This document shows positions 8,025 through 25,058 of a DNA stretch of 64,000 nucleotides, one piece after another. A program made the position numbers and the translations under genes. Below the pieces are notes generated by a model, which worked only from the letters and a program-made list of their open reading frames with translations, ran no database searches and had not been told where the DNA came from. Origin of the DNA: Cloacibacterium rupense (GTDB lineage Bacteria; Bacteroidota; Bacteroidia; Flavobacteriales; Weeksellaceae); contig NZ_BMLV01000001.1 in NCBI RefSeq assembly GCF_014645495.1, positions 541,996 through 605,995 of the forward strand. Reading direction: 5' to 3'. Numbering within the stretch: the stretch's first letter is position 1; every line of letters starts with the position of its first letter.

Positions 8025-9770
8025 TTATAATTTTTCAAAAGCTTTTTGAACAACTTTTGCAATTCTTTTTCTTCTTTCCAAAAGAAAATCTTGATAGTTC
8101 ATTTCCTCCCAATTTTCTGGTAAAGCATGCCAATAGTACATTCTTTGCCATACATCATTATCAAATCTACTTCTATAATATGGTAAATATATCTTAGGTT
8201 CTTTATCACTTATAGCAATATTATCACTCCATTCTACTAATGCAAAATTGGCAATCTGATTGTAATCTCTTTGTTCGGTAACACCGTTTCGCATTAACCA
8301 AGCTTTTGGAAATAAATGATGTCTTTCTAAAGCAGATTTATTTGCTCTTAAACCAGATTCCAAAAGTTCTTTGACTTGCAGTTTTGAAAAAAGACCAAGT
8401 GCATTATGTATGTTTAAAGATGCATAATAAGCAAATAAAGATGGCGAACGGAATGATGAAGTTGCCAAATCCATAGGAAGTGTAACCTCCCAAAAATCTG
8501 ATGTCAATTGAGAATCAACAATTGAGTTGAGTTCTTTTACAAAATCATCAGCATTTTCTACAGAACGGAATTTTGCTAAATCCATTTCCATAGCAGTTTC
8601 AGGAGACCCTGTGTACCTTCCGGTAATAGAACACATAAAAAACCATTTGGCTATTAGTTTTTTTAATTCATATAAATCTACTTTATAATCTATTCTGCCA
8701 ATCAAAAAGAAGACATAAGAGTATAAAATATTGTTATTAGAAGAAATGAAACTTTCGTTATTATACCCTGCTTGTTTTAATGCTTTGATGAACTCATGCC
8801 AATTCTGAATATCCAAAGTGTGCGCTTGTGCTACTTTCAATTTTTCAAACTGTTGTTCTCTTCTTTCTTCACTAAACAATCCTGTCTCTAGATCTTTTCC
8901 TCTCAAGATACTGTAAATGTATTGTAATCTCGCTCTTCTAAATGCCAAACCAACACTTGCTCTTAACATTTGTTCTGGTTTTGGCACTATGAGGTAATTA
9001 AATGGAGTTGCGTAAGTAGTAGAAGGTAATCTAGCATCACGACAGAAGTTTTCTAAATTGGTTCTTCCTTCATCCCAAAATACACTCATTAAGGTTAAAA
9101 TGAAATCTGCTTGGTTGAGGGTTTTTCCTTCGGAATTGATTCTTACAAAAACATCTGCAACTTGTTCTTCGTCTATTTCTTGTGAAAGTTCTAAAACAGA
9201 AAATGGATAGTTTTCTAAATTCTTCAGTCGCATAAATGCTTCTTGAATTTTCATCTCTAATTCATCTGAAACCACAATATGATTTTTCAAGTTAGCCACA
9301 AAATCCATGATGACTTTAAAAATATTGATGTTGGGTTGCCATAAATCTGAAATGTTTTGATAATATCTAGGATTCCTTTTTATAGCGGCATCTGGAACTT
9401 CAAATTTATTTTCTAAAGGATTGAAAGCAATTATAATTTTTGTCTTTTCGTAGTTTTCTCGAATGACTTCTTGTCCTTTTAGCACCGCATACAATGATGT
9501 TAATCTTTGCTGACCATCTACAATTAAAAGATTGGCAAACTTTTGTTTGATATCTGTACCAATTCCTTTTACCCCATCTATATTGGCATTTTCCCAAAAA
9601 AGAAAATAACCAACAGGATAACCTTTGTACAAACTATCAAAAAGGTCACGCACTTTGGTATCTTTCCATACAAAAGGTCTTTGAATGTCTGGTAAGCCAA
9701 TAGTTCCTAAATCTATATTTTGAATGAGTGAATTGAGATTGTATTTTACATCTTTAAAAAGTGTTGCCAT
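8025..9770 (-). CDS. DUF262 (GmrSD-type) protein with C-terminal HNH-like motif
   Basis: 581 residues. The N-terminal DUF262/ParB-like domain has IQRPFVW (29-35) and DGQQR (85-89), the nucleotide-binding signature of GmrS and related defence proteins. The C-terminal region has ERHHLFPKAWL (about 482-492) followed by an Asn in IANFALVEW (about 506-514), which fits an HNH-type nuclease of the DUF1524-like kind. In GmrSD enzymes this combination cuts modified DNA and is NTP-stimulated. It is the last gene of the minus-strand defence cluster, 144 bp beyond the DUF4391 gene, so it may be a separate unit. Confidence 0.88.
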   Translation of the reverse strand: MATLFKDVKYNLNSLIQNIDLGTIGLPDIQRPFVWKDTKVRDLFDSLYKGYPVGYFLFWENANIDGVKGIGTDIKQKFANLLIVDGQQRLTSLYAVLKGQEVIRENYEKTKIIIAFNPLENKFEVPDAAIKRNPRYYQNISDLWQPNINIFKVIMDFVANLKNHIVVSDELEMKIQEAFMRLKNLENYPFSVLELSQEIDEEQVADVFVRINSEGKTLNQADFILTLMSVFWDEGRTNLENFCRDARLPSTTYATPFNYLIVPKPEQMLRASVGLAFRRARLQYIYSILRGKDLETGLFSEERREQQFEKLKVAQAHTLDIQNWHEFIKALKQAGYNNESFISSNNNILYSYVFFLIGRIDYKVDLYELKKLIAKWFFMCSITGRYTGSPETAMEMDLAKFRSVENADDFVKELNSIVDSQLTSDFWEVTLPMDLATSSFRSPSLFAYYASLNIHNALGLFSKLQVKELLESGLRANKSALERHHLFPKAWLMRNGVTEQRDYNQIANFALVEWSDNIAISDKEPKIYLPYYRSRFDNDVWQRMYYWHALPENWEEMNYQDFLLERRKRIAKVVQKAFEKL

Positions 9771-9914
9771 GGTTTTGCTTTAATTTTTTGTTTTTAATTT
9801 GGGTGATGAATTAGTCTTATTATATTGCCTTAATCATTTTTGTAAACTTTTCCAAAATAGCGTATTTTATTTAATAACAAATATCTTAGATTTTTATCAA
9901 TTAATAATAATTCG

Positions 9915-10562
9915 TCATTTATCATTTAATAATTTTTCTAATTCTTTTAGTTTTAAATTTAACGCCACTTTTTTATTGAATTGCTTACTGTTAGTTATTG
10001 CGAGTTTTAGCTTATTAATATCTCTCTTTATTATATCCAATTCTTTTTGTGATTCTACTAAATGTTGAATAGTTTTTGAATCAACTAAGTTTAGCTTGAA
10101 TTGTTCACAAAAATCTTTATACAACCAATCTAAGGAGTTTTTAAGGTTAATTATCAAGTTAAAGTCTGATTTTAATGACCATTCTGTGGTAAAAGTATAA
10201 TCTATAACTGCATGATCTGGATTATTTGGATTGCTATGTTTGGGAGAAGTAGAAACGTAAAATTCATCCTTAAAAATAATTATGAAAATAATGGTATATG
10301 GAATTGTTTTGTCAATTACTTCCAATAATTTTTTAATATTACTTTTTTCTTTTAATTCAATAGTAAATATTTGTATCTCTTCAATCTCCTTGCCTTGCAA
10401 ATTAATGGTCTCAAATGATAATTTATTTACCCAAGTGATTTTAGAAATATAAATAGAAAAGTCCTTTTTTTGTTTATTTGTTATATAAGAATCAAAGGAA
10501 TTTTTGGGAATTACTTTTTTTACTTCAGTGGATGTAGGTAGATTAAACATATCAAATTTCAT
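9915..10562 (-). CDS. DUF4391 family protein
   Basis: 215 residues. The layout matches DUF4391: N-terminal FNLPTSTEVKKVIPK, a central beta-rich region (about 45-140), and a C-terminal helical end with EKLLNDK. Family members sit next to SNF2-type helicases and type III-like methylases in defence loci and are thought to be accessory subunits. It starts 11 bp after the stop of the helicase gene, so the two are probably co-translated. No catalytic residues are evident. Confidence 0.8.
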   Translation of the reverse strand: MKFDMFNLPTSTEVKKVIPKNSFDSYITNKQKKDFSIYISKITWVNKLSFETINLQGKEIEEIQIFTIELKEKSNIKKLLEVIDKTIPYTIIFIIIFKDEFYVSTSPKHSNPNNPDHAVIDYTFTTEWSLKSDFNLIINLKNSLDWLYKDFCEQFKLNLVDSKTIQHLVESQKELDIIKRDINKLKLAITNSKQFNKKVALNLKLKELEKLLNDK

Positions 10563-10573
10563 TAATACTGTTA

Positions 10574-13500
10574 CTATTTTACAATCAGAAAAGAAATTAA
10601 TTTAAAATCCTCTATTCCTTTGAACCTATCTTTCATTATTGTAGTTCCTCCCGCTCTAAATAAGCTTAGAATCTCTTTTTCCTCTTCCGTTTCTAAGATG
10701 GAGCCTATAGCATTTTTAAGCAATTCAGAATAATGAGACATATTATGATATTCATCTGTTTCTTCACTTACCTTTTCACAGAGAGAAATGATTGGCTCTT
10801 TTATTCCTTTGCAAAGTTTTCTAATTGCATCTAATGTTTTCTTAGAATCAATATGATTAAGAATTAATCTGCCTTCATTACTTATATAAACCAAATAAAA
10901 AGGATGAAGGCGATTGAGTCTGTTAATATTAATATTTTCATTGATGTTTTTTAAAACAAAAATAACACCTGGTCTCAAAATATCTGTAGATTCTACTACT
11001 GCATGAATGCCTTCTGGTATATCAATCATTTCGCCATATTCTTTGATAAAGTTTGATAAATCTATTCTAAAGTCATTAAGTCCCAAGTCTGTAATGTCTA
11101 TTCCTTCTCTTAAATCCTCTAAATCTGTTACTTCTTCTTGAAGTTTTTTTAATTGGATTTTTCTGTATTCTAAATCTTTTTGGTTTTCTTTAAGTAAATT
11201 ATCATCAGCAGTACCAGATAAGTCTGAAATAAGCATTCTATCTTCTACCCTTTGTTTCAAATTAATGTAGTTATCTAAAGTAATATCTGGCCAAAAATTC
11301 ACCAGAGTAATAGATTCATTTTTAGAACCTATCCTGTCTATTCTACCAAATCTCTGAATGATTCGAACTGGATTCCAATGAATATCATAATTAATCAAAT
11401 AATCACAGTCCTGAAGATTCTGTCCTTCTGAAATACAATCTGTGGCAATTAAAATATCTATTTCTTCATCAATTTTAGGGTAAACCAAAGCTTTGTCTTT
11501 TGATAGCGGAGAAAAACTGCTTAATAAAGCATTAAGTTCTGTAGGAATATTTTTAGTTGTGGCCACTCTTCTAGAACCTGAAATAAGAGTACTGTTTATA
11601 TGATATTTATCTTTAAAAACCCGACTAACATTCTCATATAAGTAGTCTGCGGTATCTGCAAATGCAGTGAAGATGATTACTTTTTTATTATTACCGTTAA
11701 AAGGATTATTGATTTTAGCTTCAATATTTTTGATAAGTGTTTGGAGTTTATAATCAAATTTTGGGGTAATTTTATTTACTTTTTTCATTAATTCATTAAG
11801 AATTTCTAAATCTTCTTCTAGATCTTCCTTCCATTGTCTGCGATCAATATCTGCTAAGTGAACTTTTACTTTATTGCCAAATAAATTTTCCTCGTCTCCC
11901 CAATTAGAATCCCAATCAAAATTTTCATTTTCAGTATCGAAGTGACTACTTGTTAGCGATTCTAAACCGTCTTTATTCAATGCCTTTAAAGTATTTTCTA
12001 TTTGAATTAATATACCTTTCGTTGTAATTCTAAAAGAGTCTATAGAACTTTCTATTCGCTTCAAAAGATTAATGCGCATTAGAATTTTCAAACTCTTTTC
12101 TCTATCAAGTTGAGTAAGTTTTCCACCTTTCGTTTTTTTATCATATTTATCTGCATATTTGGGTAATTGGCTTGGCAGAATATATTTTAGTGGAGAATAT
12201 ACCGAAAGATTTAATCTACTTAAAAAATCAGCAATTTCTACATAGGTCAAACTATGATCTTCTGTTAAAGAACATTCTAAGGATAAAGGTTTATTTCTTT
12301 TGGGAAATTTTCCAATATCTGCGGTATCATAATAAGTGGTAATATGTTTTCTAGAGCGGGCAATGGTTAACGAATCCAGAATTTCAAAAAAATCAAAATC
12401 AAGCATTTCTAAAAGTTTTTCGGTAGTTCTTTCAGAAATATCCATTTTAGACCATTCATTAAAAGCAGTTTGTGCTCTTTTAAAAATTTTATCAATGCCG
12501 TTGTGTGTATCTAATTTGTCATCTATTATTGTAGAATCACCTTCGTAAGCTAGTGCTAATTGATTTTTAAGATCACTAAAACGATTATTTACTGGGGTAG
12601 CAGAAAGCATTAAAACCTTGGTCTCTATACCATCGCGCATTACTTTTCTCAATAATTTTTGATAACGGTTTTCTTTTTCGGAATACGTAAGACCAGCGTT
12701 TCTAAAATTATGAGATTCATCAATGACTACCAATCCATAATTCCCCCAGTTTACATTGGCTAAGTTTCTACCATTACTCATCCCGTTTTCTCTTGATAAA
12801 TCGGTATGGAAGAGCACATCATAACGCAATCTATCTTGAGCTAAAATATTGTTTTTATCATTATGACGATAAGTATTCCAGTTGGCTTCCAGTTTTTTCG
12901 GACAAAGAACCAATACATCTTTGTTTCGCATTTCATAATATTTGATAATCCCTAAAGCCGAGAATGTTTTACCCAAACCCACACTGTCTGCCAAAATGCA
13001 ACCCTTATATTTTTCTAGTTTATTAATAGCCCCTATTACTGCATCTTTCTGAAAATTAAATAGTTTATTCCAAATGACAGTATCTTTAAATCCTACTCTA
13101 TCATCTGGTAAATGATCTAGACTTAAGTCATCTAAAAAATCATTGAAGATATTATAAATCGTTATGAAATAAATAAACTCTGGACTGTTTTCTTTAAACG
13201 CTTTTTCAAAATACTGCTGAACTTGTTCTGTTACTTCTTCTAAATCTTCTTCGTTTTCCCATATCTGGTTAAACCAGTCTAAATAAGCTTTACTATTGGG
13301 ATAATCTGTTTTTTGAATTAAAGTAGGAAAACCCTTTTTAGGAGTCACGCCTAAATCTGACGTAGTAAAACTTTGCAAATTATTCCATGCAAACTCTTCA
13401 TTTTCTGAGTTTTGTGAATGGATAATTCCAGGAATTGGAAAACCTGTTTGTTTATTAGATTTGAATGTTACTTTTTCTTTCACCCATTTACTGCATTCTT

Positions 13501-13804
13501 GTGCTATTGCGCGCTGATTAAGCTGATTTCTTAACCGCAACTCAAAATCTCCACCACAGAGTTCTGCTTCTTTGTAGAGATGTGGAATAAAGAATTTAGG
13601 AACTTCTTTCTTAAGGTTATCTTGAATAAAAGTGGGCGATGTAAAAACAAAACGCAGTTCTTCTATATTTTTAAGTTCTTTTCTCAATGCTTCAAAAGCA
13701 TAGATAGAAAACGAAGAAGCTGCAATAGATAGTTTACTTTTTTTACCAATGCTTTCTTTTAAATCGTCTATTAAGCGGGTGTTGATATTGTCAATTAGTT
13801 TCAT
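10574..13804 (-). CDS. PLD-like/SNF2-type helicase of a defence system
   Basis: 1076 residues. The N-terminal 100 residues look like the PLD-like module found before such helicases (SKLSIAASSFSIYAFEAL). The helicase core has Walker A ADSVGLGKT (272-280), motif II DESH (362-365), motif III SATPVNN (401-407), and motifs V/VI in ISEGQNLQ and QRFGRIDRIGS. This places it in the SNF2/HepA-like superfamily 2. The C-terminal 250 residues are unassigned. The ATG overlaps the stop of the upstream GHKL gene (TAATG), so translation is coupled. Similar helicases occur in DISARM-like and type III-like systems, but the DISARM partners are absent. Confidence 0.9.
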   Translation of the reverse strand: MKLIDNINTRLIDDLKESIGKKSKLSIAASSFSIYAFEALRKELKNIEELRFVFTSPTFIQDNLKKEVPKFFIPHLYKEAELCGGDFELRLRNQLNQRAIAQECSKWVKEKVTFKSNKQTGFPIPGIIHSQNSENEEFAWNNLQSFTTSDLGVTPKKGFPTLIQKTDYPNSKAYLDWFNQIWENEEDLEEVTEQVQQYFEKAFKENSPEFIYFITIYNIFNDFLDDLSLDHLPDDRVGFKDTVIWNKLFNFQKDAVIGAINKLEKYKGCILADSVGLGKTFSALGIIKYYEMRNKDVLVLCPKKLEANWNTYRHNDKNNILAQDRLRYDVLFHTDLSRENGMSNGRNLANVNWGNYGLVVIDESHNFRNAGLTYSEKENRYQKLLRKVMRDGIETKVLMLSATPVNNRFSDLKNQLALAYEGDSTIIDDKLDTHNGIDKIFKRAQTAFNEWSKMDISERTTEKLLEMLDFDFFEILDSLTIARSRKHITTYYDTADIGKFPKRNKPLSLECSLTEDHSLTYVEIADFLSRLNLSVYSPLKYILPSQLPKYADKYDKKTKGGKLTQLDREKSLKILMRINLLKRIESSIDSFRITTKGILIQIENTLKALNKDGLESLTSSHFDTENENFDWDSNWGDEENLFGNKVKVHLADIDRRQWKEDLEEDLEILNELMKKVNKITPKFDYKLQTLIKNIEAKINNPFNGNNKKVIIFTAFADTADYLYENVSRVFKDKYHINSTLISGSRRVATTKNIPTELNALLSSFSPLSKDKALVYPKIDEEIDILIATDCISEGQNLQDCDYLINYDIHWNPVRIIQRFGRIDRIGSKNESITLVNFWPDITLDNYINLKQRVEDRMLISDLSGTADDNLLKENQKDLEYRKIQLKKLQEEVTDLEDLREGIDITDLGLNDFRIDLSNFIKEYGEMIDIPEGIHAVVESTDILRPGVIFVLKNINENININRLNRLHPFYLVYISNEGRLILNHIDSKKTLDAIRKLCKGIKEPIISLCEKVSEETDEYHNMSHYSELLKNAIGSILETEEEKEILSLFRAGGTTIMKDRFKGIEDFKLISFLIVK

Positions 13805-16800
13805 TACAAATCAAATGTTTTTAAATAGTCAACAAATTCGTAGAAATTTTTCCCATTAGTCCAAATTGGTTTATTTATATATACAGATTCTATTTTTTTA
13901 TCTAAAACAACATTAATATTCTCACTTTTAGAAAGATTATCGAGTCCATTATCCCAGTTAATTATCTTGTCTCCAATTTGATAACCAATGTCTTTTACAA
14001 ATTTCGCATTTTTGATAAAATATTCTTCAGTGATTTCGGTAATATCATCAGGTCTTGTTACAACACATAAAGCATAATTATCTTTTTCTTTAACGGCAGT
14101 ACGTCCTTGCAAAATCGACATACGTACATTTGGCTTATCTTCAATAACATTTTTAATCTCAACAGAAAATTTATCAGATTTAAGAACCAGTTCAAAATCT
14201 TTACCTACATCTGGATTTCTAATCTCAATTTGAAGATTGAGATTTGAAAAAACTTTTTTGAACGCATCTTCAGCTGTTTTTCCAATTTGTTTCCATTTTT
14301 CTCTTTGTACTCTAAGATTAATCATTTCATCAGCCTTTTCCAATAGTTCTTCAGTCCCTAATTCATTTGCAACTCTCTCTAGTTCCTTCATTTCAGCGGT
14401 AGATAATTTGATTTTTGCTAATTCAGCAATATCTTCCATTGATTTGCCTGATTGCTTTAATGCCATTATTTGCTTACTGAATCCATCTCCTAAAGAAATC
14501 ACATATAACATATCTCTTTTTGAAGCAAAAGTTTTTAGATATGCTGAAGCATCTGAATGTTTTTCATACCAACTATTAATTTCTAAAAAAACCTGATGGA
14601 GTTCACCATCTTTTGAAACTTTAGTCTGAATATTAGGATCAAGGAATAAATTATCAATTTTTTCTGTGATTATTGGTATAGAAGCTGTTCTAAAATTTGA
14701 AATATTTAATTTATTTGATACCAAAAAAGATCTTACATTATACTTACAATAATCTTTAACAATATCTTTCAAGTTTTCATCGAAATATTTTGTATCCTCT
14801 TCTTGAAATATAGATTCCGAATCATAAGCAAAATCCCCATTTTGCATTGGTATTACTTTGTATTTGGCAATAAAACCTTTAATATCTTCTCTCGAACTAT
14901 TTATATAATTAATAAATGAACTTAACCAAGTGTACGCTGACTCTTCATTACTGTCAAAATAAGTTTGAGCAAATGAATTAAAATTTTGCTCTTTTTGAAT
15001 TAACCAACACAAATATTTTGCAGTCCACAATTCCGCAGGATAACTAAAGTTCTCATAATCTATTGAAATTATTTTTCTTTCACTAACTTTTTCAGGAAGT
15101 AGTTCCTTTATAATATCTAACCATTGTTCTCTCCTCGGTGCTCTATCACTTCTAAACAATGTGTTTATGTGTAAAATTGAGTTAATCTGTTCATCTGTTG
15201 CTTCTTCAATCTTAAGTTGACTTATAAGATCCGAATTGAGTGATTTGTAAAATTCATGTAAATTAAATTCTTTAATATCATTGACTTTGCCTAAGAATTT
15301 ATTTAAAAACTCAGTATCTAAATCCCTTCCGAGTTTTCTGGAAACATATTTCATTTCATCATCAATGTCAGGATACTGAGAAACTTCCAATCTAGTTTTA
15401 AATTCATTTTTCTCATTGAGATAAATTGGATATGATTCTCCTAACTTCGAATTTTTTACTTCTAAAAAATCATAAACTTTCTTTAGCTTTTGATACGTTT
15501 CCGGCTTTGTAAAATCGACAAAATTAGGTAAGCCAGCCAGTAATTGTTCCAAAGAAATTGTAACTTCGGTATTCCAACTATGATATTCTTGATTGATAAT
15601 TTTATTCCAGTCTTTTAAGCTTTCAGAAGATGGAACCTGATTGGGTATTAAATCCTTTAATAATTCAAAAAATTCTAAGTCAGTCGCCAAGTCAATTATT
15701 GGAAATCTGGCTTCCTTAATTAGACTGAGATTTCCATTTGCATTTTTAACAATAGCTTTCTCAGATATTAAGGTTCTAATAGGTTTTTGTATATTCTCCA
15801 AATACCATTCTTCATTATGATATTTCTCTACAAATTCAGGTAAACCAGAAAGCGCTAAGTGATGTAAATTATCACAATTGGAATCTATTAACGTAGAAAT
15901 AAACTTCAAATATTCTTCAATAAATTCTTTGAGATAAAAGCGATTATTATCAGCCGTAGCATCTTGCATATTATCATCTTCTTTTTTTGTTCTAATTCCA
16001 TCCCGCTCCTCTGTCGGCTTAAAGTTTTTATGCTGTACAAAAACGGGTAAATGGAAATTTTCAGAACCTATCAATGGAAATTCTTTATATAATACTGATT
16101 TACCCTCAATACTTTCTATACTATAAATTCCATCATTATTTATAACTGGAAGTCCAAAAATTATTGATTCTGTTTCCTTATATAAGATTCCAGAATTATT
16201 TTCTACTTCTATATAATCCAACCCATCTATTGAGCTTGGAACAGGATTAATTTGAAAAAATTTCTTTACTCCATCTCTAATAATTGTTACAGAGTTGATA
16301 TGCTTTTTTTCTTTTTTATTTATTAGAAGTACAAATGGAATATTATTTTCCAATTCTTCCAACCCACTAATTGCGTATTTTTTTGAAGTAACAGACAAAG
16401 GATATGTAAATGAATGAAGCAAAACGTCTATGTTTTCTGCAGGATTATCAACGATTTCATCAATTTGCTGAAAAGCATTTAATAAAGATTGTTTCATTTG
16501 TTCTAAGGCCTTTGTTTCCTCCAAAGTTGCTGCAGTTCTATCTATTTCTAATATAAATTTTCTTAAAGTTGCATCTTCTTTTCTTTGATGAATTCCATTA
16601 ATGGTAAGTTTTCTACTCAAAATATGTGTTGTAATAAATCCTGTCCCATATTTTCCAGTTGTTCCGTCAACTCCACTTAATGATTTTGTAGATGTTTTGT
16701 ATAATAGTGCAAGCAAATGTTTGGTTTCAAAAGCAGAACCGTTATGTGAAAATATAATTTCATCATTTTTTAATTCATAAGTAATGTTAACACCTTCTTC

Positions 16801-16974
16801 TGTAGCTACATCTTTAGCGTTTTGTAATAATTCCCATACCCATCTTGTTTTTTTATTTTCCGGAAATGTATTTAACCTATCTATATCGTGAATAATATCT
16901 CTTGCTTCACTTTCGCTTCTCTGCAATTCTCTTTCTTTTTGAGCTTCTGTCATTTTCTCCAAGTTATTAGTCAT
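13804..16974 (-). CDS. GHKL ATPase (sacsin/MutL-like) with C-terminal PD-(D/E)xK nuclease-like domain
   Basis: 1056 residues. The N-terminal ATP-binding fold has the N box ELLQNAKD (48-55) and the glycine box GTTGKYGTGF (104-113), as in histidine-kinase-like ATPases of the sacsin-like defence group. The C-terminal part (about 898-985) has DVGKDFELVL then VEIKN. D926, E939 and K941 give a D-x12-E-x-K pattern like DUF3883/PD-(D/E)xK nucleases. The 700-residue middle is unassigned. Its start overlaps the GIY-YIG gene by 8 bp and its stop overlaps the helicase start. This suggests one functional unit: ATP-gated nuclease plus helicase plus GIY-YIG protein. Confidence 0.85.
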   Translation of the reverse strand: MTNNLEKMTEAQKERELQRSESEARDIIHDIDRLNTFPENKKTRWVWELLQNAKDVATEEGVNITYELKNDEIIFSHNGSAFETKHLLALLYKTSTKSLSGVDGTTGKYGTGFITTHILSRKLTINGIHQRKEDATLRKFILEIDRTAATLEETKALEQMKQSLLNAFQQIDEIVDNPAENIDVLLHSFTYPLSVTSKKYAISGLEELENNIPFVLLINKKEKKHINSVTIIRDGVKKFFQINPVPSSIDGLDYIEVENNSGILYKETESIIFGLPVINNDGIYSIESIEGKSVLYKEFPLIGSENFHLPVFVQHKNFKPTEERDGIRTKKEDDNMQDATADNNRFYLKEFIEEYLKFISTLIDSNCDNLHHLALSGLPEFVEKYHNEEWYLENIQKPIRTLISEKAIVKNANGNLSLIKEARFPIIDLATDLEFFELLKDLIPNQVPSSESLKDWNKIINQEYHSWNTEVTISLEQLLAGLPNFVDFTKPETYQKLKKVYDFLEVKNSKLGESYPIYLNEKNEFKTRLEVSQYPDIDDEMKYVSRKLGRDLDTEFLNKFLGKVNDIKEFNLHEFYKSLNSDLISQLKIEEATDEQINSILHINTLFRSDRAPRREQWLDIIKELLPEKVSERKIISIDYENFSYPAELWTAKYLCWLIQKEQNFNSFAQTYFDSNEESAYTWLSSFINYINSSREDIKGFIAKYKVIPMQNGDFAYDSESIFQEEDTKYFDENLKDIVKDYCKYNVRSFLVSNKLNISNFRTASIPIITEKIDNLFLDPNIQTKVSKDGELHQVFLEINSWYEKHSDASAYLKTFASKRDMLYVISLGDGFSKQIMALKQSGKSMEDIAELAKIKLSTAEMKELERVANELGTEELLEKADEMINLRVQREKWKQIGKTAEDAFKKVFSNLNLQIEIRNPDVGKDFELVLKSDKFSVEIKNVIEDKPNVRMSILQGRTAVKEKDNYALCVVTRPDDITEITEEYFIKNAKFVKDIGYQIGDKIINWDNGLDNLSKSENINVVLDKKIESVYINKPIWTNGKNFYEFVDYLKTFDL

Positions 16975-17548
16975 TTTTTAATTTTAATATGCTTTCAGCT
17001 TCTGCTCTACAAATCTGTCTCAATCCGTCAAGTTTATCTGCAAAAATATTATAGTTCCTTGTCCTTTTATCTAAATCTAAAGTTGGTTTCAAAAATTTTA
17101 TCACTTTCTTCTCCCAATCTCTCAACTCAGAGTAAGAAATTGAATTCTCATCTTCCCAATAACCAATGATAAGATTTGCAGTCATCCAATCTGTCAAAAG
17201 TCTTTCTCCTTCTTCATTGAACTTGTAATTAAGTAATTCTCTTTTGCTATTTGTTCCATTTCGAGAAAATGCTATTAAGCTAAATTCTTCTTTTAAAATA
17301 GCACCAATAGAGCGACGTAAAGTAGAGCTACCCGTACTTTTACTATTGAAGTGATTTCCGAAATCTCTATCCTTCAAACTATTCTTTGCAATTCCAACAT
17401 AAAGCGTCTGATTGGGTTTCCCAAATTCTTTTAAATATGAGCTTTCATTAAGAAAAAAAGCATAAATACCAGGACAATCCGGGTAAGTTATGTGCTCATT
17501 GAAACCTTTAGCATTGGCTTTTATAGATTGTACTATTTCATCTAACAT
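16967..17548 (-). CDS. GIY-YIG nuclease-like protein of the defence cluster
   Basis: 193 residues with CPGIYAFFL (GIY at 27-29) and TLYVGIAK (YVG at 50-52), followed by SLKDRDFGNHF and STLRRSIGAIL. This is a GIY-YIG fold with the usual Tyr pair and a candidate catalytic Arg. The C-terminal half (about 110-193) is helical and not assigned. It overlaps the GHKL gene by 8 bp and is the first gene of that coupled set. A 79-bp remnant of a mod gene lies immediately upstream. Confidence 0.85.
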   Translation of the reverse strand: MLDEIVQSIKANAKGFNEHITYPDCPGIYAFFLNESSYLKEFGKPNQTLYVGIAKNSLKDRDFGNHFNSKSTGSSTLRRSIGAILKEEFSLIAFSRNGTNSKRELLNYKFNEEGERLLTDWMTANLIIGYWEDENSISYSELRDWEKKVIKFLKPTLDLDKRTRNYNIFADKLDGLRQICRAEAESILKLKND

Positions 17549-17561
17549 ATTAGTTAATATT

Positions 17562-17640
17562 ACATCACCCTCATCTCTGTTTGTGGGGAAAGTTGTTTTA
17601 GGAATTGTCTTACGTTTTCTATTGAGGTAACATTTTTAAA
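17562..17640 (-). pseudogene. Remnant of the 3' end of a type III mod gene
   Basis: This 79-bp stretch aligns without gaps to 19670-19748, the 3' end of the intact mod gene, with seven mismatches (about 91% identity). On the minus strand it reads as the last 26 or so codons of Mod, including a version of QLLKQLSPQTEMRV. It lies between the GIY-YIG and DGQHR genes. The simplest reading is that the two genes at 17661-19648 were inserted behind mod with duplication or exchange of its end, leaving this scar. Confidence 0.85.
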
Positions 17641-17660
17641 ATAGATAATAAATTAATATC

Positions 17661-18860
17661 TTAATTAACATTTTTCTTTGATGTTGGAATCCCTATTTCT
17701 TCAGCTAATTCTTTAAACAATTGATTTTGTAATCCAGCTGAACCACTACCAGAGTATTTACTTTTAGCACCAAAATATTTTTCAATTAGTTCATTATTAT
17801 TTTCAAAAGCAAGAAACATTTTTCTAAATAATTTTTCTAAATCATTTAGACTTAAATCTAATAATTCAACTTTTTCAGATTTTTTATATAATCCTAATTT
17901 TAAATTTTTATCTATCCAACCTAATAACTTTATCAAAGCGCCTAAAGCATTAGTTTTTGTTAAAATAGTAGCACTAGATTTATCAACTGTAACTGGCCAA
18001 TAGGCTTTAAAAATGTCTTTAATTACATCAAAATAAGCTACAAAAACTTTTGGAAGTTTCTTATATGCATCACCATCCTTTTTAAAATCATCAGTAATGT
18101 AATTCCAAGTTCCTTTAGGGCTAAAGTTAGGAAGTATGGCTTGCATTAAAAAGGATTGTGAAACAAATCCTGTTTTTCTATCAAAATCTTTAACAAAACC
18201 TTTTAAAGGAGATTTTTCTGACTTATTGAGATATTTACCCAATTCATGAGCCACATAGAGATTACTTAATTTATAATCTTTATTTTCTCTAGGTATTTCA
18301 CCAAATATATCATAGTATAATGATCTATCAACAGGTTTCTGGTTGAAGTTTACATCTGCAAAAATCCTTGCTTGTTCCCATAAATCATAATTAATTAATA
18401 AAGTACAATTAAATTTATAATTATTTATTTTTTCAACAGATTTGTTGGCATTCATGTAATCATTATAAAGACTTTCCATTGCCTTCATTCTATGTTGACC
18501 ATCTACGATTAGGCAGCTTTCTTTTTCAATTGGAAATTCAAAATCAACTATTCCATTATCAAATTTTAGATTTTCAAATTCAAAATCAGTACTTAAAATT
18601 AATGAAGAAGGAAAAAGAACATTTGAATTATCCAGATTATTGATTAGATTATCTTCAATATATTTTTTAATATCTTTTACTCTTTTTTCATTAGTTGATC
18701 TTTGATAAAATTTATCAGATTCAATATCAAAATTTTCTTCAATAGACCAATTAGATGCTTCTCTCTTGGAAAATTTAACAATATTATTAAGTTTACTAAA
18801 CTCAATAGATGTGATTAAAATAATATGATCATTATTTTTATATAATTCAATGGCTTTCAT
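17661..18860 (-). CDS. DGQHR-domain protein (DndB/ParB-like fold)
   Basis: 399 residues. CLIVDGQHRMKAM places the DGQHR motif at 120-124. The motif defines a ParB/sulfiredoxin-like domain family that includes DndB, the regulator of DNA phosphorothioation loci. No dnd genes are present, so a DndB role is not claimed. The C-terminal half (about 225-395) is helical and ends in a Gly/Ser-rich segment (KYSGSGSAG). It starts 11 bp behind the membrane coiled-coil gene, forming a two-gene unit with it. Confidence 0.82.
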   Translation of the reverse strand: MKAIELYKNNDHIILITSIEFSKLNNIVKFSKREASNWSIEENFDIESDKFYQRSTNEKRVKDIKKYIEDNLINNLDNSNVLFPSSLILSTDFEFENLKFDNGIVDFEFPIEKESCLIVDGQHRMKAMESLYNDYMNANKSVEKINNYKFNCTLLINYDLWEQARIFADVNFNQKPVDRSLYYDIFGEIPRENKDYKLSNLYVAHELGKYLNKSEKSPLKGFVKDFDRKTGFVSQSFLMQAILPNFSPKGTWNYITDDFKKDGDAYKKLPKVFVAYFDVIKDIFKAYWPVTVDKSSATILTKTNALGALIKLLGWIDKNLKLGLYKKSEKVELLDLSLNDLEKLFRKMFLAFENNNELIEKYFGAKSKYSGSGSAGLQNQLFKELAEEIGIPTSKKNVN

Positions 18861-18871
18861 ATACTTAATTT

Positions 18872-19648
18872 TTAAATAGATAAATATTCATCTGAAAATA
18901 AATCTCCAATTTTTTCTTTTGTGGTTTCAGTCTCTAAATTATCACCAGCTTTCTTCTCTTCAACTTTAGAATTTCTTTCAATTGATCTTTTATCGCAGCA
19001 TTTTTCAATTTGCTCTTCTAAACTAGAAATTCTAGTATTTATGCTTTCATTTAATTTATTAGTAAAATCATCACTTACTTGTAGTTCTTTATTTTCAAAC
19101 TTTTCTTTAAATTCAAAATTAATTTGATTTCTAATATCCTTCTTAATTTCTTCTAAATTTTGTTGAACTTCAGCCTTAGCTTCAATTTCAGCAATTTTCT
19201 TTGCTTCAAACTCTGCTGTCTCAACTGTACTTTTTTTTATTTCATTAATAGATTTAAAACCAAAAAAAGTAGCCAATGCAACAAGTATTGAAAGAAAACC
19301 TGCTCCGTAGGTAAACAATTTACTTCTATCTTCTTGAACAGAAAGAATAGATTCCATTCTTTCGTGTTGAGTTTTCACAGAATTATTAATTTCTTCAAGA
19401 AGTTTCTTATTGTTTTCCTCAATCGAAACAATCGAAATAGAATCTTTAAAATTTTTATTGGTATTGTTAGAAATAGTAATTTGATATTTTATTTCTAAAG
19501 GCTTAGAAGCTAATTTTTCAGGATCTTTAGTTATTAATTTAAAGATCAACATTAATAACAAACAAACTGCTAATCCTACAACAATTAAGGCAGTCCATTC
19601 ACCTCCAATTATTAATTGTGAAATTGACTTTTTTTCTTTATCATCCAT
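18872..19648 (-). CDS. Two-TM membrane protein with long coiled coil
   Basis: 258 residues of unknown family. TM1 is at about 19-39 (TALIVVGLAVCLLLMLIF) and TM2 at about 111-131 (LFTYGAGFLSILVALATFFG). The Lys/Glu-rich C-terminal region (about 135-235) is predicted coiled coil with a single CC pair (EKCCDKR). Both ends should face the cytoplasm. It lies between mod and the DGQHR gene (gaps 19 and 11 bp). Membrane proteins in this position in defence islands are often effectors that disturb the membrane; that role is inferred from place and shape only. Confidence 0.75.
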   Translation of the reverse strand: MDDKEKKSISQLIIGGEWTALIVVGLAVCLLLMLIFKLITKDPEKLASKPLEIKYQITISNNTNKNFKDSISIVSIEENNKKLLEEINNSVKTQHERMESILSVQEDRSKLFTYGAGFLSILVALATFFGFKSINEIKKSTVETAEFEAKKIAEIEAKAEVQQNLEEIKKDIRNQINFEFKEKFENKELQVSDDFTNKLNESINTRISSLEEQIEKCCDKRSIERNSKVEEKKAGDNLETETTKEKIGDLFSDEYLSI

Positions 19649-19667
19649 AGTTATTAATTTTTAGTTT

Positions 19668-21626
19668 TTACACCACCCTCATCTCTGTTTGTGGGGAAAG
19701 CTGTTTTAGGAGTTGTCTTACGTTTTCTTTTGCGGTATCATCTTTAAAACCATTATCTCTAAACACAATACGCAATGGTTTTTCTTTGGCAATTTCTTTG
19801 GCAAAAGCTTCGTCTAGTTCATGATCAAAACATGCGTAGAGAGAATCTCCTGCTACAGAAAATACTTCTTTGCCGGCAATGGTTTTACGCTCTATTTTTA
19901 GAGAAAGTGGCAACCCCCAATCTAGCATAATCTGGGTAAGCAAATCTTCTGCGGTACGATCTGGCTTTACATTATCAGCAAAAAGATCTAGCGTAGCTTG
20001 GTTATATTCTTGCGGTTTATAGTACACCTCTTGCATATTGCTAGAATCTAAACGATAGACACGGAAACCTAAGTCGATGTTTGAACCAGGATTTGCTTGA
20101 ACATTGTCCGAACCAGGATTTGCTTGATTTTCCTGATTACCAAGATTAAATAAATCCTGAGAATCCTGGTTCAGACCTTTTCCATCCTGAGAATCCTGGT
20201 TCAGACTTTCTTTTATTTTTTGTGCTGCACGGCGTATTCTTTCTTTGCCTATTTCGCAGATGTTTTTGTAACCAACCTTGTTTGCTTGACTTTTTTCAGT
20301 TGTTAACTCGGGAACTTGTACCATAATATATTTTCTATTGCCGCCATCTTCTGCATTGAGTTGCATTACGGCATGTGCTGTTGTGGCAGAACCAGAAAAG
20401 AAGTCGAGTATCAAACCTTCTCTTGATGAAATCTCAATACATCTTTTTATTAACAAGGACGGTTTAGGAGTATCAAAAACATTTTCAGGAATCAAATCTT
20501 TCATTTCATATCTAGCAATTTTCGTATCTGCAGCAAATTCTCGATGCCACCAAGTTTGCGGAGTTATACCATCTTTAACTTCAGTTAAGAATTTTTTCTG
20601 CATTGGTCTTGCTGTACCTGCAACTCCGAAAGTAATCCTATTATCATTCAATAATTCATTAAATTTTGTCTCTGATATCCTCCAAGATGTTGATTCTGGT
20701 GGCCAATGGATTTGACCATTTGGTCCTGTAATTGGGAAATAACAGTTTTCAGAAAAAGTTCGAACCGACAAATCACTTGCTCTCCATACTCCTCTTGGAT
20801 CATTATCTGGATTTTTATATGCAGCTAATTGCTTTTCATCTCGCTTTAATAAAATTGGATTCCAGAAACTTATGTTTTTTGCATACAAAATAATATGTTC
20901 GTGAGTATCTGACATTCCTTGAGCATCATTCGCAGGACCATACTTTTTTTGCCAAACAATGTTCGCAACAAAATTCCCTTCTCCAAAAATCTCATCACAA
21001 ATCTTTCTCAGATTATGCACTTCATTATCATCGATAGAAATAAAAATAACACCGTCTTCCGTTAAAAGATTTCTTGCCAGTTTTAATCTTGGGTACATCA
21101 TGCTTAGCCAATCGCTGTGGTAGCGTCCGCTGGTTTCTGGGTTGACTACCAGCTTTTGGTTGTACTCGTCTTTTTGTCCGCTTTCCAAGAGTTCTTCGTT
21201 TCCAGCTTTGGCAAAATTGTCTTTATACACAAAATCTTTCCCCGTGTTGTAAGGCGGGTCTATGTAAATCATTTTTATTTTGCCTAGATAACTTTCTTGC
21301 AAAATTTTTAGCACTTCTAGGTTGTCTCCTTCTATGTAGAGGTTTTCGGTGGTATCAAAGTCAACAGAATCTTCACGCACTGGTCGCAAAGTTTTGGTGG
21401 TAGGCAAATTGGCGGTAACAATGGCTTCTCTTTTCCCTGGCCATTCTAGTCGGTAGCGTTCTTTGTTGCCTTCTACAATTTCGGTAGAGAGTTCTTGCTT
21501 TAGCAAATCAAAATCTATGCGTTTTCCTTCTGCAGTTTCGGTAACGCAGTTCGGGAAAAGAGCCGCTATTTTTTCGATATTAAGGCTGGTAATATCGGTA
21601 GATTTTAGGTCTAGTTTATCGTTCAT
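19668..21626 (-). CDS. mod: Type III DNA-methyltransferase (Mod), adenine-N6
   Basis: 652 residues. DPPY (123-126, in YIDPPYNTGKDF) is catalytic motif IV, and DFFSGS (408-413) is the SAM-binding motif I. DPPY before FSGS is the beta-class order used by type III Mod subunits. Target recognition should lie between them, about 225-380. Residues 475-518 are a low-complexity insert made of repeated NQDSQD and QANPGS units. Mod both protects host DNA and gives the complex its sequence specificity. Its start is 7 bp from the stop of res, the expected partner, although Res is translated first here. Confidence 0.95.
   Translation of the reverse strand: MNDKLDLKSTDITSLNIEKIAALFPNCVTETAEGKRIDFDLLKQELSTEIVEGNKERYRLEWPGKREAIVTANLPTTKTLRPVREDSVDFDTTENLYIEGDNLEVLKILQESYLGKIKMIYIDPPYNTGKDFVYKDNFAKAGNEELLESGQKDEYNQKLVVNPETSGRYHSDWLSMMYPRLKLARNLLTEDGVIFISIDDNEVHNLRKICDEIFGEGNFVANIVWQKKYGPANDAQGMSDTHEHIILYAKNISFWNPILLKRDEKQLAAYKNPDNDPRGVWRASDLSVRTFSENCYFPITGPNGQIHWPPESTSWRISETKFNELLNDNRITFGVAGTARPMQKKFLTEVKDGITPQTWWHREFAADTKIARYEMKDLIPENVFDTPKPSLLIKRCIEISSREGLILDFFSGSATTAHAVMQLNAEDGGNRKYIMVQVPELTTEKSQANKVGYKNICEIGKERIRRAAQKIKESLNQDSQDGKGLNQDSQDLFNLGNQENQANPGSDNVQANPGSNIDLGFRVYRLDSSNMQEVYYKPQEYNQATLDLFADNVKPDRTAEDLLTQIMLDWGLPLSLKIERKTIAGKEVFSVAGDSLYACFDHELDEAFAKEIAKEKPLRIVFRDNGFKDDTAKENVRQLLKQLSPQTEMRVV
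20073..20204. repeat. In-frame short-repeat insert inside mod
   Basis: About 130 bp with two copies of CCTGAGAATCCTGGTTCAGA-type units and two copies of GAACCAGGATTTGCTTGA-type units. The two unit types share GAACCAGGAT in opposite orientations, so they can pair. The insert encodes the repeats NQDSQD and ANPGS. Confidence 0.8.
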
Positions 21627-21633
21627 TTTGATT

Positions 21634-24600
21634 TTATTTTAATTGTGCAATATCTAATAATTTGCTGTAATTGGTAATTACATCAAATTTTACTTCGCTA
21701 CCGCTTATCGTACGGAAGTGTTCTTGTGCGCAATGTATTTTTAGTTGTTCTATTTCTCTCAGTTGGTTTAGCTCATCAGAGCCTTTGGTTTCTGCTACAA
21801 AATAGATGTGCCTTACTTTCTCTTTATCTAGCACTATGGCCCAATCTGGGCTGTAATGGGCAACAGGTGTAGAAATGTAAAAACTTTTTGGCAATTTGGC
21901 ATATACTATTACTTCTGTAGCTTGCTCTAGGTTTTCGGCAAATTGTTTTTCTATGCTAGAATCTGTATTTAGAAAATCATAAATATGTTTTTGGAGTACC
22001 TCATTGGTTCTTATAATACTCTTATCATTGGTAAAAACTGTTTTGGCATCATAAGATTCTTCGGTTTTATGATACGCAATATTGTTAATGATAAGGCTTG
22101 CCTTGGCTTCGTTAATTAGTTTTGCGGTTTTGGCAATAAATTCTTCGGGGTTTTGTCTGAGCATGTAGAACTTGTCAGATTTTATAGATTTCAGAATTTC
22201 TACCAATGTGCTTCTTTTAAGATTGGTAATAGCTTCTATTTCTCCTACAATATCATAAGAGACTTGGGCGTATAAATCTGCTTTTATTTTCTGCTGTTCT
22301 GTTTTGGTTACAGTAATGGCAGTGCCTTCTTTCAAATCTTCTTTGGAGGCTTCTTGCAGTTCGCCAGTTTTTATTTCATAACTTCTGCTAGAGACGTGTA
22401 AATCTGCATTAATTCTGTTTCTGCTTTCTTCAATGAGTTTCAGCGTATCAAATTTCACTTCATAGATGGTTTTCAGACTTATTTTTTTCCAAAGTTCCTG
22501 AAACTCTTTTTTTGCAAAGTTCTGATTGGTTTGTAAAGTTATGGTTTGTCTTTCATCTACTGGTTTTGGCGCTTCGCCATTATAAACAGATTGCAGTAAC
22601 TTATGAACGGCTGCTGCATAAGGCAATAAATTTTCGGGTAAAGGAACTTCGTTTTTTTCAATACGCTCTTTACCTTCTGCCGTTATTTTGTCATCTTCAT
22701 CCAGAATGTCATGTTTGTAGAGAAATTTATTAAGCTTTTTAGCGTCTTCATCGGTAAGTCTTATGGTTTCATCTTTTTCATTGGTTAATAATTTACCAAG
22801 GAAAAACTTAGCATCTGCTTTTACTGGGCGATCTTTCAGAGAATTGGCAATTTCTGTTTGCAAACCTTTGGCAAAGGCTTCATAACTTTCAGAGGCTATT
22901 ACCGTTAATTTATTAATTTCCTGTACTTGTTCTCCTACCAATTCAAAATCTTGTCTTGTCCCACGATGATCAACACAAAGCCTCATTCCTCGCCCAACTT
23001 CTTGTCTTCTTCTGGTTTGGCTACCACTATCAATATTTTTGAGGGCACAAATTTGGAAGACATTCGGATTGTCCCAACCTTCCTTCAGCGCAGAATGCGA
23101 GAAAATAAAACGCGTAGGTTCCTCAAAACTTAAAAGTTTTTCTTTGTCCTTCATAATGAGATCGTAAGCTGATACATCATCAGAATCTTCGCTTCCTCTC
23201 TTAATGGTAGGATCTACGGGTTTCCCTTTTTTATCAATAGAGAAATAACCATTATGCACTCTATCTGCATCATCTCTTTTCAGATACTCCAAATAATTGC
23301 CTGGTGCATAAGCTTTGTGTATTTTTCTGGCATCAGTTTCTACTACAAAATCGGTATATTCTTGTTGGAATAAGTCTATGAATTCATTGACTACCTTTTG
23401 ATATTCTTCTTCAAAAATTTTGGCATACTCTCCTAATTCTGCTTCTCCTAATTCATTATAGACTCTGTATTTTTCAACAGAATCAATAAAAAATAAGGAC
23501 AGTACTTTAATTCCTTTATCAAATAATGCTTTTTCTTTTTGTAGGTGAGAAAGTATTGTTTCCCTAATTTGTATTCTTCTGAAAGCTAATTCATCTTTAT
23601 CATTCAGTACATCACCAGGATAAATGTCTTGCCCGTTGACTACAATTTTATTTTGATAGCCATTAATCTCTGTTATTAAGCAATTCTTATAAGCAGGTAA
23701 TCCACCTGAAATTTCGTATAAATCTACGCCTTGTTCTAATTTTTCACGAACTCTTTTTACTCCGTTGCCATTTCTTTTTTCATACTCCAAAATTGCAATG
23801 GGCGGTTTGTTTACACTTAAAGCGATATGCTCTAGGTAGAGATAGCCAGATGTTCCTGTAGAGCCTTTCAAATTAATTCCTTTTACCTGAATTTTTTTTA
23901 CCAGCTTTTTATTGTAAGCATCTAGTGCATCTAACCTATAAACTTTATTATACTCTTCGGCATGTGTTGCAGAATATCGCAAAGTAAAAAGTGGGCGAAA
24001 ATCTTCCATACTTTGCAAGGTAACAGAACCTTTTTTCCCTACAGATTGAGGTTCGTCAATGATTAGAATAGGATTGGTTTGAGACAATATCTCAATAGGC
24101 TTTCTAGAACCAAACTGATCAAGTTCTTGGTGTATTCTTCTTGCATCTGCACCTTTTGCTGCAAAAGCTTGTGTATTAATAATCATTACACTTATTCTAC
24201 TATCCGAAGCAAAGGTTTCTATATCCTGTGGACGTGAAGAATTATAGATGAAAGGGCTAATTTTGTGCCCATAAATTTCCTGAAAATGTTCTTGCGTAAT
24301 CTCAAAAGTCTTGTAAACGCCTTCTCTTATCGCAATGCTAGGAACAATGATAATAAATTTACTCCATCCATATTTTTTATGCAATTCATACATCGTACGA
24401 ATGTAGGTATAGGTTTTACCTGTACCGGTTTCCATCTCTATAGTAAGATTATACCCTATGTTTACACCTAGTAGGGTATCTATAGTCTGATTTTCGATAA
24501 GATTTTGTTCTCTTTGAACAGATTTGAGATTTTCTAAAAATTGACGGTCTGTAATTTGAATAGCACTATTCCTATAGCCTATATCTTCTAAAATATCATG

Positions 24601-24777: not shown

Positions 24778-24870
24778 TATTAATTTTGATAATAAAGTGC
24801 TAAATTTACAAAAACCTTCCTTAACACCAATACGGGAACCCTGAAAATATCCATAAAAACCCATAATATT

Positions 24871-24905
24871 CAAAAAAAATCCACCCTTTCGAGTGGATTT
24901 ACTTT
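24871..24905. terminator. Bidirectional hairpin terminator
   Basis: AAATCCAC (24877-24884) / GTGGATTT (24893-24900) with an 8-nt loop, flanked by an A-run on the left and ACTTTTTT on the right. An identical hairpin recurs at 25702-25725. It lies downstream of the GIY-YIG gene and upstream of res, both on the minus strand. Confidence 0.8.
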
Positions 24906-24940
24906 TTTATGTTAAAAAATGAATGTTTTTTTAATTGGTT

Positions 24941-25052
24941 GTGGTTTCGGCTCCGCTCAACCACCGAATTTTTTTTATTGTCGTTGCTATTCATTGGTGA
25001 CTGAGCGGAGTCGAAGTCACCATTACTGTTGTTTCGACTCCGCTCAACCACC
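24941..25052. repeat. REP-like palindromic units, left group
   Basis: Three alternating units: TTTCGGCTCCGCTCAACCACC (ends 24965), its inverse form GGTGACTGAGCGGAGTCGAA (starts 24996), then TTTCGACTCCGCTCAACC (from 25032). Neighbouring units can fold on each other. The last ends seven bases before the stop of the GIY-YIG gene. Confidence 0.85.
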
Positions 25053-25058
25053 TAATTA

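What the first reader, a model, noticed from the sequence alone, without database searches (positions are those of the whole stretch)
8025..17548. Compact GIY-YIG / GHKL-nuclease / PLD-helicase / DUF4391 system
Four genes overlap or nearly touch (8-bp overlap, TAATG overlap, 11 bp), with DUF262 144 bp further on. They combine three potential nucleases (GIY-YIG, PD-(D/E)xK at the end of the GHKL protein, HNH of DUF262) and two ATPases. It contains none of the core genes of BREX, DISARM or Dnd, and has no methylase of its own unless it shares mod.
Basis: partly seen in the sequence, partly recalled or inferred. Interest (0 to 1): 0.72.

Follow-up and report, generated by a model that had tools for sequence, protein, structure and literature searches.

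The report
Type III restriction operon with cargo genes
The five genes flagged are not a stand-alone system: two belong to a little-described four-gene version of a bacterial DNA-cutting defence that also occurs in E. coli, and the others look like swappable defence genes inserted into it.

Summary
Genes, coordinates and overlaps are as described, but the unit is drawn wrongly. The SNF2 helicase and DUF4391 belong with the type III mod and res genes just upstream. Of 83 loci chosen only by the helicase, 7 are cut short; 74 of the other 76 hold helicase, DUF4391, Mod and Res, ten with Res running off the end. Starting from DUF4391, 18 of 20 places have the helicase and 18 of 20 have Mod. GIY-YIG and GHKL occur in 1 of 83 loci, L043; a close relative, L056, has mod next to the helicase without them, so the pair is cargo. 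The GHKL protein matches PADLOC's TmtA over its full length. Cargo elsewhere includes AlbA/Schlafen, GmrSD, RhuM, Fic, AAA_13 and Abi families. The helicase's N-terminal domain has a PLD fold closest to SauUSI but no conserved HxK motif. DUF4391 has no clear PDB match. Prior work (PMC8259958) reported an extra helicase-like ATPase in other type III systems; its Eco86II gene lacks the PLD-like part and DUF4391. Verdict: an uncharacterised type III variant with interchangeable cargo, testable in E. coli.

The parts
21634..24777 (-). Res, type III restriction subunit (SF2 helicase + PD-(D/E)xK). ORF called from 24873 (TTG); relatives align from residue 33, so an ATG at 24777 is the likelier start
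   Evidence: REase_III 3.7e-278; EcoP15I Res 3.8e-61
19668..21626 (-). Mod, type III beta-class DNA methyltransferase (DPPYNTG)
   Evidence: MTase_III 7.6e-250; EcoP15I Mod 2.8e-65
19668..19749 (-). 82-bp direct repeat, copy 1: 3' end of mod
   Evidence: 91.5% identical to copy 2
18872..19648 (-). Cargo: membrane-anchored coiled-coil protein, no family match
   Evidence: found in 0 of 83 loci
17661..18860 (-). Cargo: DGQHR-domain protein (DndB/DpdB-like)
   Evidence: TIGR03187 4.6e-32; found in 0 of 83 loci
17560..17641 (-). 82-bp direct repeat, copy 2: leftover mod 3' end upstream of GIY-YIG, marking where the coiled-coil/DGQHR cassette probably entered
16967..17548 (-). Cargo: GIY_YIG_2 nuclease
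   Evidence: only also in L043 of 83 loci
13804..16974 (-). Cargo: GHKL (sacsin-like) ATPase with C-terminal PD-(D/E)xK motif, PADLOC TmtA family
   Evidence: (TmtA 7.6e-226, residues 9-1053 on 6-1058 of 1063)
10574..13804 (-). Core: SNF2-family helicase with N-terminal degenerate PLD domain
9915..10562 (-). Core: DUF4391 protein, alpha/beta domain plus C-terminal helical hairpin
8025..9770 (-). Downstream cargo: DUF262/GmrSD_N-type protein, 144 bp after DUF4391
   Evidence: DUF262 labels in 11 of 83 loci

Best explanation
The locus is an extended type III restriction-modification operon. Its core is Mod, Res, a pseudo-PLD SNF2 translocase and DUF4391. Mod reads an asymmetric site and methylates host DNA. 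On unmethylated phage DNA the Mod-Res complex moves along DNA and cuts with the Res PD-(D/E)xK domain. The SNF2 protein and DUF4391 are dedicated partners that most likely help this enzyme work in the cell, by clearing bound proteins, loading or turning over the complex, or easing the need for paired sites. GIY-YIG + GHKL, the coiled-coil + DGQHR pair and DUF262 are cargo that uses the operon as a carrier and adds back-up anti-phage layers. Shown here: gene content, co-occurrence, intact Mod and Res motifs, the missing HxK motif, presence and absence of the cargo, the mod-tail repeat. Inferred: every biochemical step.
For: Of 83 loci chosen by the helicase, 64 hold at least 70% of all four core profiles and 10 more hold all four with Res running off the end: 74 of the 76 not cut short. 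DUF4391-first: of the 20 best other places, 18 have the helicase and 18 have Mod. DUF4391 in 20 of 65 genomes with a REase_III match against 4 of 325 without, Fisher p about 1e-13. In a Res tree of 74 rows, 34 rows form one branch (SH-aLRT 100): 27 helicase-linked, 7 undetermined, none unlinked, across several phyla. The same four genes sit in order in three kinds of E. coli locus. Mod DPPYNTG in all 74 aligned sequences; Res PD, E and K columns in 96% of 66; no column of the first 247 helicase residues with His in 60% or more of 79. PLD fold nearest SauUSI. Cargo: 37 of 69 first-pass complete loci carry an extra ORF inside the operon, none of the 76 such ORFs matching a core profile, with defence-type families among them. 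In E. coli the DUF4391-Mod junction holds no same-strand cargo or different genes. L043 has GIY-GHKL right behind mod, L056 lacks it, and the window has an 82-bp mod-tail repeat around the DGQHR cassette.
Against: L101 (18% of the Mod profile, no Res) and L107 (28% of the Mod profile, Res in pieces) are broken. Seven of 34 helicase-linked Res rows fall in a second branch with 7 rows labelled unlinked; of these, L206, L217 and L222 end too early to tell and L207 keeps a DUF4391 remnant before mod, but L205, L208 and L209 look truly unlinked, so the partnership can be gained or lost. Four more distant PLD-SNF2 homologues (L039-L042, 26-31% identity) had no Mod, Res or DUF4391 match in their 15-20 kb. 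For Eco86II the extra ATPase was not required for methylation, and the partially purified enzyme that cut in vitro held no peptides of it (PMC8259958, section 17 and passages), so a role inside the complex is not given.
Confidence: 0.6

Rival explanations
1. As first proposed: GIY-YIG, GHKL, PLD-helicase and DUF4391 are one self-contained four-gene defence system, with GHKL and helicase as motors and GIY-YIG and PD-(D/E)xK as nucleases.
For: Overlapping genes here and in L043; the GHKL stop codon overlaps the helicase start.
Against: GIY-YIG and GHKL are found in 1 of 83 helicase loci. GHKL homologues at six other sites (L017-L022) have no match to the window's helicase or GIY-YIG in the fetched 16-20 kb; ten neighbours scanned there include DUF4007, GmrSD, an HsdR-like SWI2/SNF2 protein, TIR and AlbA. 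Mod and Res are the constant partners.
Confidence: 0.05
2. Helicase + DUF4391 + Mod form a second, BREX/DISARM-like layer that uses the Mod mark to spare the host but blocks phage DNA without cutting; Res is a parallel arm.
For: The helicase resembles DrmD and BrxHI-type models. Systems built of an N6-methylase plus an HKD-SNF2 helicase are described (Type-2 BREX-related, PMC12839542 sections 28 and 31). The PLD domain has lost its motif.
Against: Res is recognisable in 75 of the 76 loci not cut short (in pieces in L107, absent in L101), with catalytic motifs in 96% of 66 aligned.
Confidence: 0.2
3. Helicase + DUF4391 are sensors that trigger the variable cargo when the type III enzyme is inhibited or phage DNA escapes (abortive back-up).
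For: Cargo families include Abi-like, Fic, AAA_13 (PrrC/RloC-like, label recalled) and GmrSD. In the 13 loci with Mod/Res upstream of the helicase, 9 have cargo in the slot just before it.
Against: 32 of 69 first-pass complete loci have no cargo ORF of 150 aa or more inside the operon, yet keep helicase and DUF4391.
Confidence: 0.12

Closest known systems
Type III restriction-modification (EcoP15I / EcoP1I)
   Same: Mod and Res with the canonical motifs and family matches along most of their length
   Different: Two extra conserved core genes (pseudo-PLD SNF2 helicase, DUF4391) and variable cargo
Type III systems with an extra helicase-like ATPase (Eco86II, BspHIV; Murray et al. 2021, PMC8259958)
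   Same: A helicase-like ATPase gene beside mod and res; in Eco86II it is SNF2-related
   Different: The Eco86II helicase (963 aa) matches only the helicase core of ours (110 bits against 1231-1918 bits for three E. coli members), has no PLD-like part and no DUF4391 gene beside it; its Res does not match our Res profile at 1e-3
DUF499-centred Type-2 BREX-related systems (PMC12839542)
   Same: N6-methylase plus HKD-SNF2 helicase fusion
   Different: No DUF499 or DUF3780 match among the ten proteins scanned; type III Res present
Tiamat (TmtA in PADLOC)
   Same: The GHKL protein matches TmtA over its full length
   Different: Here it is paired with GIY-YIG inside a type III operon; Tiamat is, as recalled, a one-gene system
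SauUSI, NgoAVII R, BfiI (PLD restriction enzymes)
   Same: Fold of the N-terminal domain: SauUSI Z 13.6, rmsd 3.4, 149 residues
   Different: No conserved HxK motif in 79 sequences

Membership tests
Type III R-M | Mod: beta-class methyltransferase with DPPY | tested here: met
   (74 of 74 aligned)
Type III R-M | Res: SF2 helicase with C-terminal PD-(D/E)xK | tested here: met
   (PD, E, K columns in 96% of 66)
Type III R-M | Mod2Res complex, ATP-dependent cleavage near paired sites | not testable with these tools
   needs purified protein
Eco86II-type (type III with extra ATPase) | Extra helicase-like ATPase gene beside mod and res | tested here: met
Eco86II-type (type III with extra ATPase) | ATPase of the Eco86II lineage, directly before mod | tested here: not met
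   core-only match of 110 bits, no PLD-like part; ours comes with DUF4391. BspHIV could not be examined
Tiamat (TmtA) | Full-length GHKL protein of the TmtA profile | tested here: met
   9-1053 on 6-1058 of 1063, E 7.6e-226
Tiamat (TmtA) | Anti-phage activity of this protein | not testable with these tools
   needs a phage assay
HKD (PLD) nuclease | PLD fold | tested here: met
   model mean pLDDT 72 with a weak loop at residues 58-93
HKD (PLD) nuclease | Conserved HxK catalytic motif | tested here: not met
   H.K anywhere in the first 250 residues in 13 of 79, no His column at 60% or more
BREX / BREX-related | PglZ+BrxC, or DUF499+N6-methylase+helicase | tested here: not met
   (full Pfam lists): no PglZ, BrxC or DUF499 match among the ten proteins from 8025 to 25364; the rest of the genome was not scanned
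DISARM | drmA + drmB | tested here: not met
   no DUF1998 (DrmB-type) match; DrmD models far below their NCBIfam cut-offs. The PADLOC lists of two proteins are cut at 25 rows
Dnd / Dpd | Sulfur or deazaguanine modification genes | tested here: not met
   only a DGQHR-domain protein, below the DndB and DpdB cut-offs, among the ten proteins scanned

The most novel reading that the evidence does not exclude
A distinct, ancient subclass of type III restriction-modification exists, in which a nuclease-dead PLD-SNF2 translocase and DUF4391 are required parts of a four-subunit machine in the cell, and whose operon is a chassis with preferred slots that trade whole anti-phage modules (Tiamat-like GHKL with GIY-YIG, McrBC, GmrSD, AAA_13, Fic, AlbA/Schlafen) between bacteria.
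Probability: 0.4. Interest if true: 0.7.

Novelty: new variant of a known kind. Interest (0 to 1): 0.52.

Why it matters
RefSeq names these genes only as a helicase-related protein, DUF4391, a methyltransferase and a type III endonuclease, and no PADLOC model matches the window's DUF4391 protein at E 0.01. A four-gene core kept across several phyla, present in E. coli chromosomes and plasmids, means part of what type III systems do in cells is unexplained. The cargo slots suggest a general way in which restriction operons collect back-up defences, as is known for type I operons (recalled).

Tried and rejected
Stand-alone four-gene system: rejected by neighbourhoods. PLD as a further nuclease: rejected, motif absent. 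Same thing as the Eco86II extra helicase: tested and rejected for that gene; BspHIV could not be examined. A genome scan with the GHKL protein alone found no relative, since its exact peptide patterns suit close relatives only; the first 395-genome protein search also missed homologues that the PADLOC profile found. GHKL or GIY-YIG relatives on plasmids (2 and 4 records) and phages (GHKL, none); the three GIY-YIG plasmid loci viewed had no GHKL annotation. PDB look-up of GHKL by sequence: no match. DUF4391 fold: no Foldseek match at E 0.001 or better; VIA rows cover mainly the C-terminal hairpin (best Z 7.2), so this is not a claim of a new fold. Literature: DUF4391/PF14335 in 1 of 5.39 million held papers, on the TM7x epibiont, seen in the listing only; DUF4391 + helicase + defense 0 papers; 'SNF2-related protein' + type III restriction + methyltransferase 0 papers; other searches. 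Passages of PMC10853773, PMC11090510, PMC12458937 and PMC10952713 showed nothing on this gene set. Subscription journals and REBASE were not searched.

Rows dropped and counts mended: L037 (same contig as L045) and the distant L039-L042 are not in the 83-locus count. First-pass ORF calls gave all four genes in 69 of 83; a six-frame check of 14 loci and then of all 83 give: 64 with at least 70% of each profile, 10 more with Res running off the end, 7 cut short of a core gene (L044, L052, L056, L078, L102, L111, L114), 2 broken (L101, L107). The Res tree used a hand-picked subset, the quick method and has two very long branches. For 12 of its 33 'unlinked' rows the stretch shows under 3.3 kb 5' of mod, or no mod, so that label is uncertain. 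The DUF4391-first test took 20 of 28 places outside the window's own, the rest being weaker or partial. The Pfam tally of cargo shows 25 of 51 families.
Full report
What is there. Upstream on the same strand, with gaps of 7 to 112 bp, lie a type III res gene, a type III mod gene, a membrane coiled-coil gene and a DGQHR-domain gene. From about 24777 to 9915 the genes read as one operon (inference from spacing), with DUF262 144 bp further on.

What belongs together. I built an alignment of the helicase from the window and four relatives and used it alone to pull loci from a collection of one genome per species (the best 80 of at least 580). With three loci found by a profile search (L035, L036, L038) this gave 83 loci. 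A six-frame profile check of all 83 gives: 64 with at least 70% of each of the helicase, DUF4391, Mod and Res profiles; 10 more with all four, Res running off the end of the stretch; 7 cut by contig ends before a core gene could be seen; 2 broken (L101 with 18% of Mod and no Res; L107 with 28% of Mod and Res in pieces). So 74 of 76 loci not cut short hold the four genes. The usual order is helicase, DUF4391, Mod, Res; in 13 loci, mostly Bacteroidota, Mod and Res come first.

Check from the other side. DUF4391 (PF14335) is in 24 of 390 genomes of the phylum, weak and partial matches included. Of the 20 best places other than the window's own, fetched with flanks, 18 have the helicase and 18 have Mod; 9 have Res, many contigs being short. 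Res matches are in 65 of 390 genomes; 20 of these 65 have DUF4391 against 4 of the other 325, Fisher p about 1e-13, taking the two draws as the same genomes. Type III loci without this pair also exist: of 33 Res rows from loci with no DUF4391 match, 21 have at least 3.3 kb visible before mod.

Depth of the partnership. In a tree of 74 Res sequences one branch (SH-aLRT 100) holds 34 rows: 27 helicase-linked, 7 undetermined because their contigs end, none unlinked. It spans Bacteroidota, Bacillota, Actinomycetota, Pseudomonadota, Verrucomicrobiota, Acidobacteriota and others. A second branch mixes 7 linked with 7 rows labelled unlinked; three of these end too early to tell and L207 keeps a 62-residue DUF4391 remnant just before mod, leaving L205, L208 and L209. 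The tree needs 6 changes of the label, 5 of them forced by starred branches: old but not fixed. More distant PLD-SNF2 homologues (L039-L042) showed no Mod, Res or DUF4391 match.

E. coli. The same four genes stand in a row on pEC21Z137-115K, an IncFIB plasmid whose neighbouring genes look like those of a phage-plasmid (my reading), in CFT073 and in NCTC11023. Copies at 90% identity or more are in 10, 54 and 24 of 5,426 complete E. coli genomes, of which 9, 52 and 23 cover at least 80% of the query.

The cargo. GIY-YIG and GHKL occur in 1 of 83 loci, L043 from Flavobacterium sp. IB48, where Mod is followed by GIY-YIG, GHKL, helicase and DUF4391. The close relative L056 has Mod, then 121 bp, then the helicase (its contig ends inside the helicase). 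The Res proteins of L043 and L056 are sisters with the window outside, so L056 may have lost the pair rather than never had it; either way the pair comes and goes while the core stays. In the window the coiled-coil and DGQHR genes lie between two 82-bp direct repeats (91.5% identical) of the mod 3' end, one being the present mod end and the other a leftover just upstream of GIY-YIG. As L043 has mod directly before GIY-YIG, the DGQHR cassette probably entered later, behind mod. Across loci, 37 of 69 first-pass complete operons carry extra same-strand ORFs of 150 aa or more inside; none of the 76 such ORFs matches a core profile. Pfam finds AlbA/Schlafen and HATPase_c_4 in 13 each, RhuM 4, GmrSD 4, Fic 3, AAA_13 2, YhcG 2, Abi_2 2, McrBC 1 and others (25 of 51 families shown). 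In E. coli the DUF4391-Mod junction has no same-strand cargo in CFT073, an ATP-dependent nuclease plus DUF2130 in strain H6 and another ATP-binding protein in CAVP776. The GHKL protein is a full-length TmtA-family member, that is Tiamat in the literature (name link recalled; PMC12409356, passages, gives only the system name).

Domains. The helicase has conserved SNF2 motifs. Its N-terminal domain, modelled at mean pLDDT 72 with a poor loop, is a PLD fold: Foldseek SauUSI 6.4e-6, VIA SauUSI Z 13.6, rmsd 3.4, 149 residues; NgoAVII R Z 12.2; BfiI Z 11.8. Yet no HxK motif is conserved in 79 sequences, so it is probably a dimerisation or DNA-holding domain. DUF4391 models well (mean pLDDT 94.7) with no clear PDB match. 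Mod and Res keep their catalytic motifs and match EcoP15I subunits of known structure.

Prior work. Murray et al. 2021 (PMC8259958; [quoted passage not shown] I located the Eco86II operon in NZ_LT601384: its 963-aa SNF2-related protein lies 20 bp before mod, with no DUF4391; it matches only the helicase core of our family (110 bits against 1231-1918 for three E. coli members) and its Res does not match our Res profile at 1e-3. So a type III system with an extra helicase-like ATPase is published, while I found no description of this lineage with a PLD-like domain, DUF4391 and cargo slots in the papers I could search. Some of the 500 genomes may include it. BREX-related Type-2 systems have an HKD-SNF2 helicase with an N6-methylase but are built on DUF499 (PMC12839542, sections 28 and 31 read). 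The 2008 MORC paper (PMC2292703, passages) describes GHKL proteins beside type III-like helicases, a general precedent for GHKL with restriction genes.

Mechanism. Most likely Res does the cutting, Mod the recognition and protection, and the SNF2 protein with DUF4391 assists in the cell. Steps shown are genomic only; the biochemistry is inferred. Rivals are a non-cutting BREX-like arm and a guard that triggers cargo.

Noticed in passing
window 17560-17641 and 19668-19749: 82-bp direct repeats of the mod 3' end flank the coiled-coil + DGQHR cassette, suggesting insertion behind mod that rebuilt the gene end.
   Followed up: partly
window 18872-19648: Membrane-anchored coiled-coil protein with no Pfam, PADLOC or NCBIfam match at E 0.01, paired with a DGQHR protein that is below the DndB and DpdB cut-offs.
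   Followed up: no
L226, L227, L228 (helicase-like ORF before mod): Bacteroidota type III loci with an SNF2 helicase next to mod and no DUF4391; the L226 helicase is 47% identical to the Eco86II helicase.
   Followed up: partly
L045, L053, L055, L077, L103, L105: AlbA/Schlafen-HATPase proteins are the commonest cargo (13 of 76 ORFs) of the extended type III operons.
   Followed up: partly
L017, L022: GHKL (TmtA-like) genes near DUF4007 genes and large ORFs of about 1070 aa at two sites; possibly another recurring defence neighbourhood.
   Followed up: no
plasmid and phage collections: The helicase family is in 102 plasmid records and 5 phage records, among them Erysipelothrix phage phi1605.
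   Followed up: partly
window 25059-25364: A small GIY-YIG protein (PF01541, 101 aa) lies just upstream of res, in another Pfam family than the GIY_YIG_2 cargo gene.
   Followed up: no
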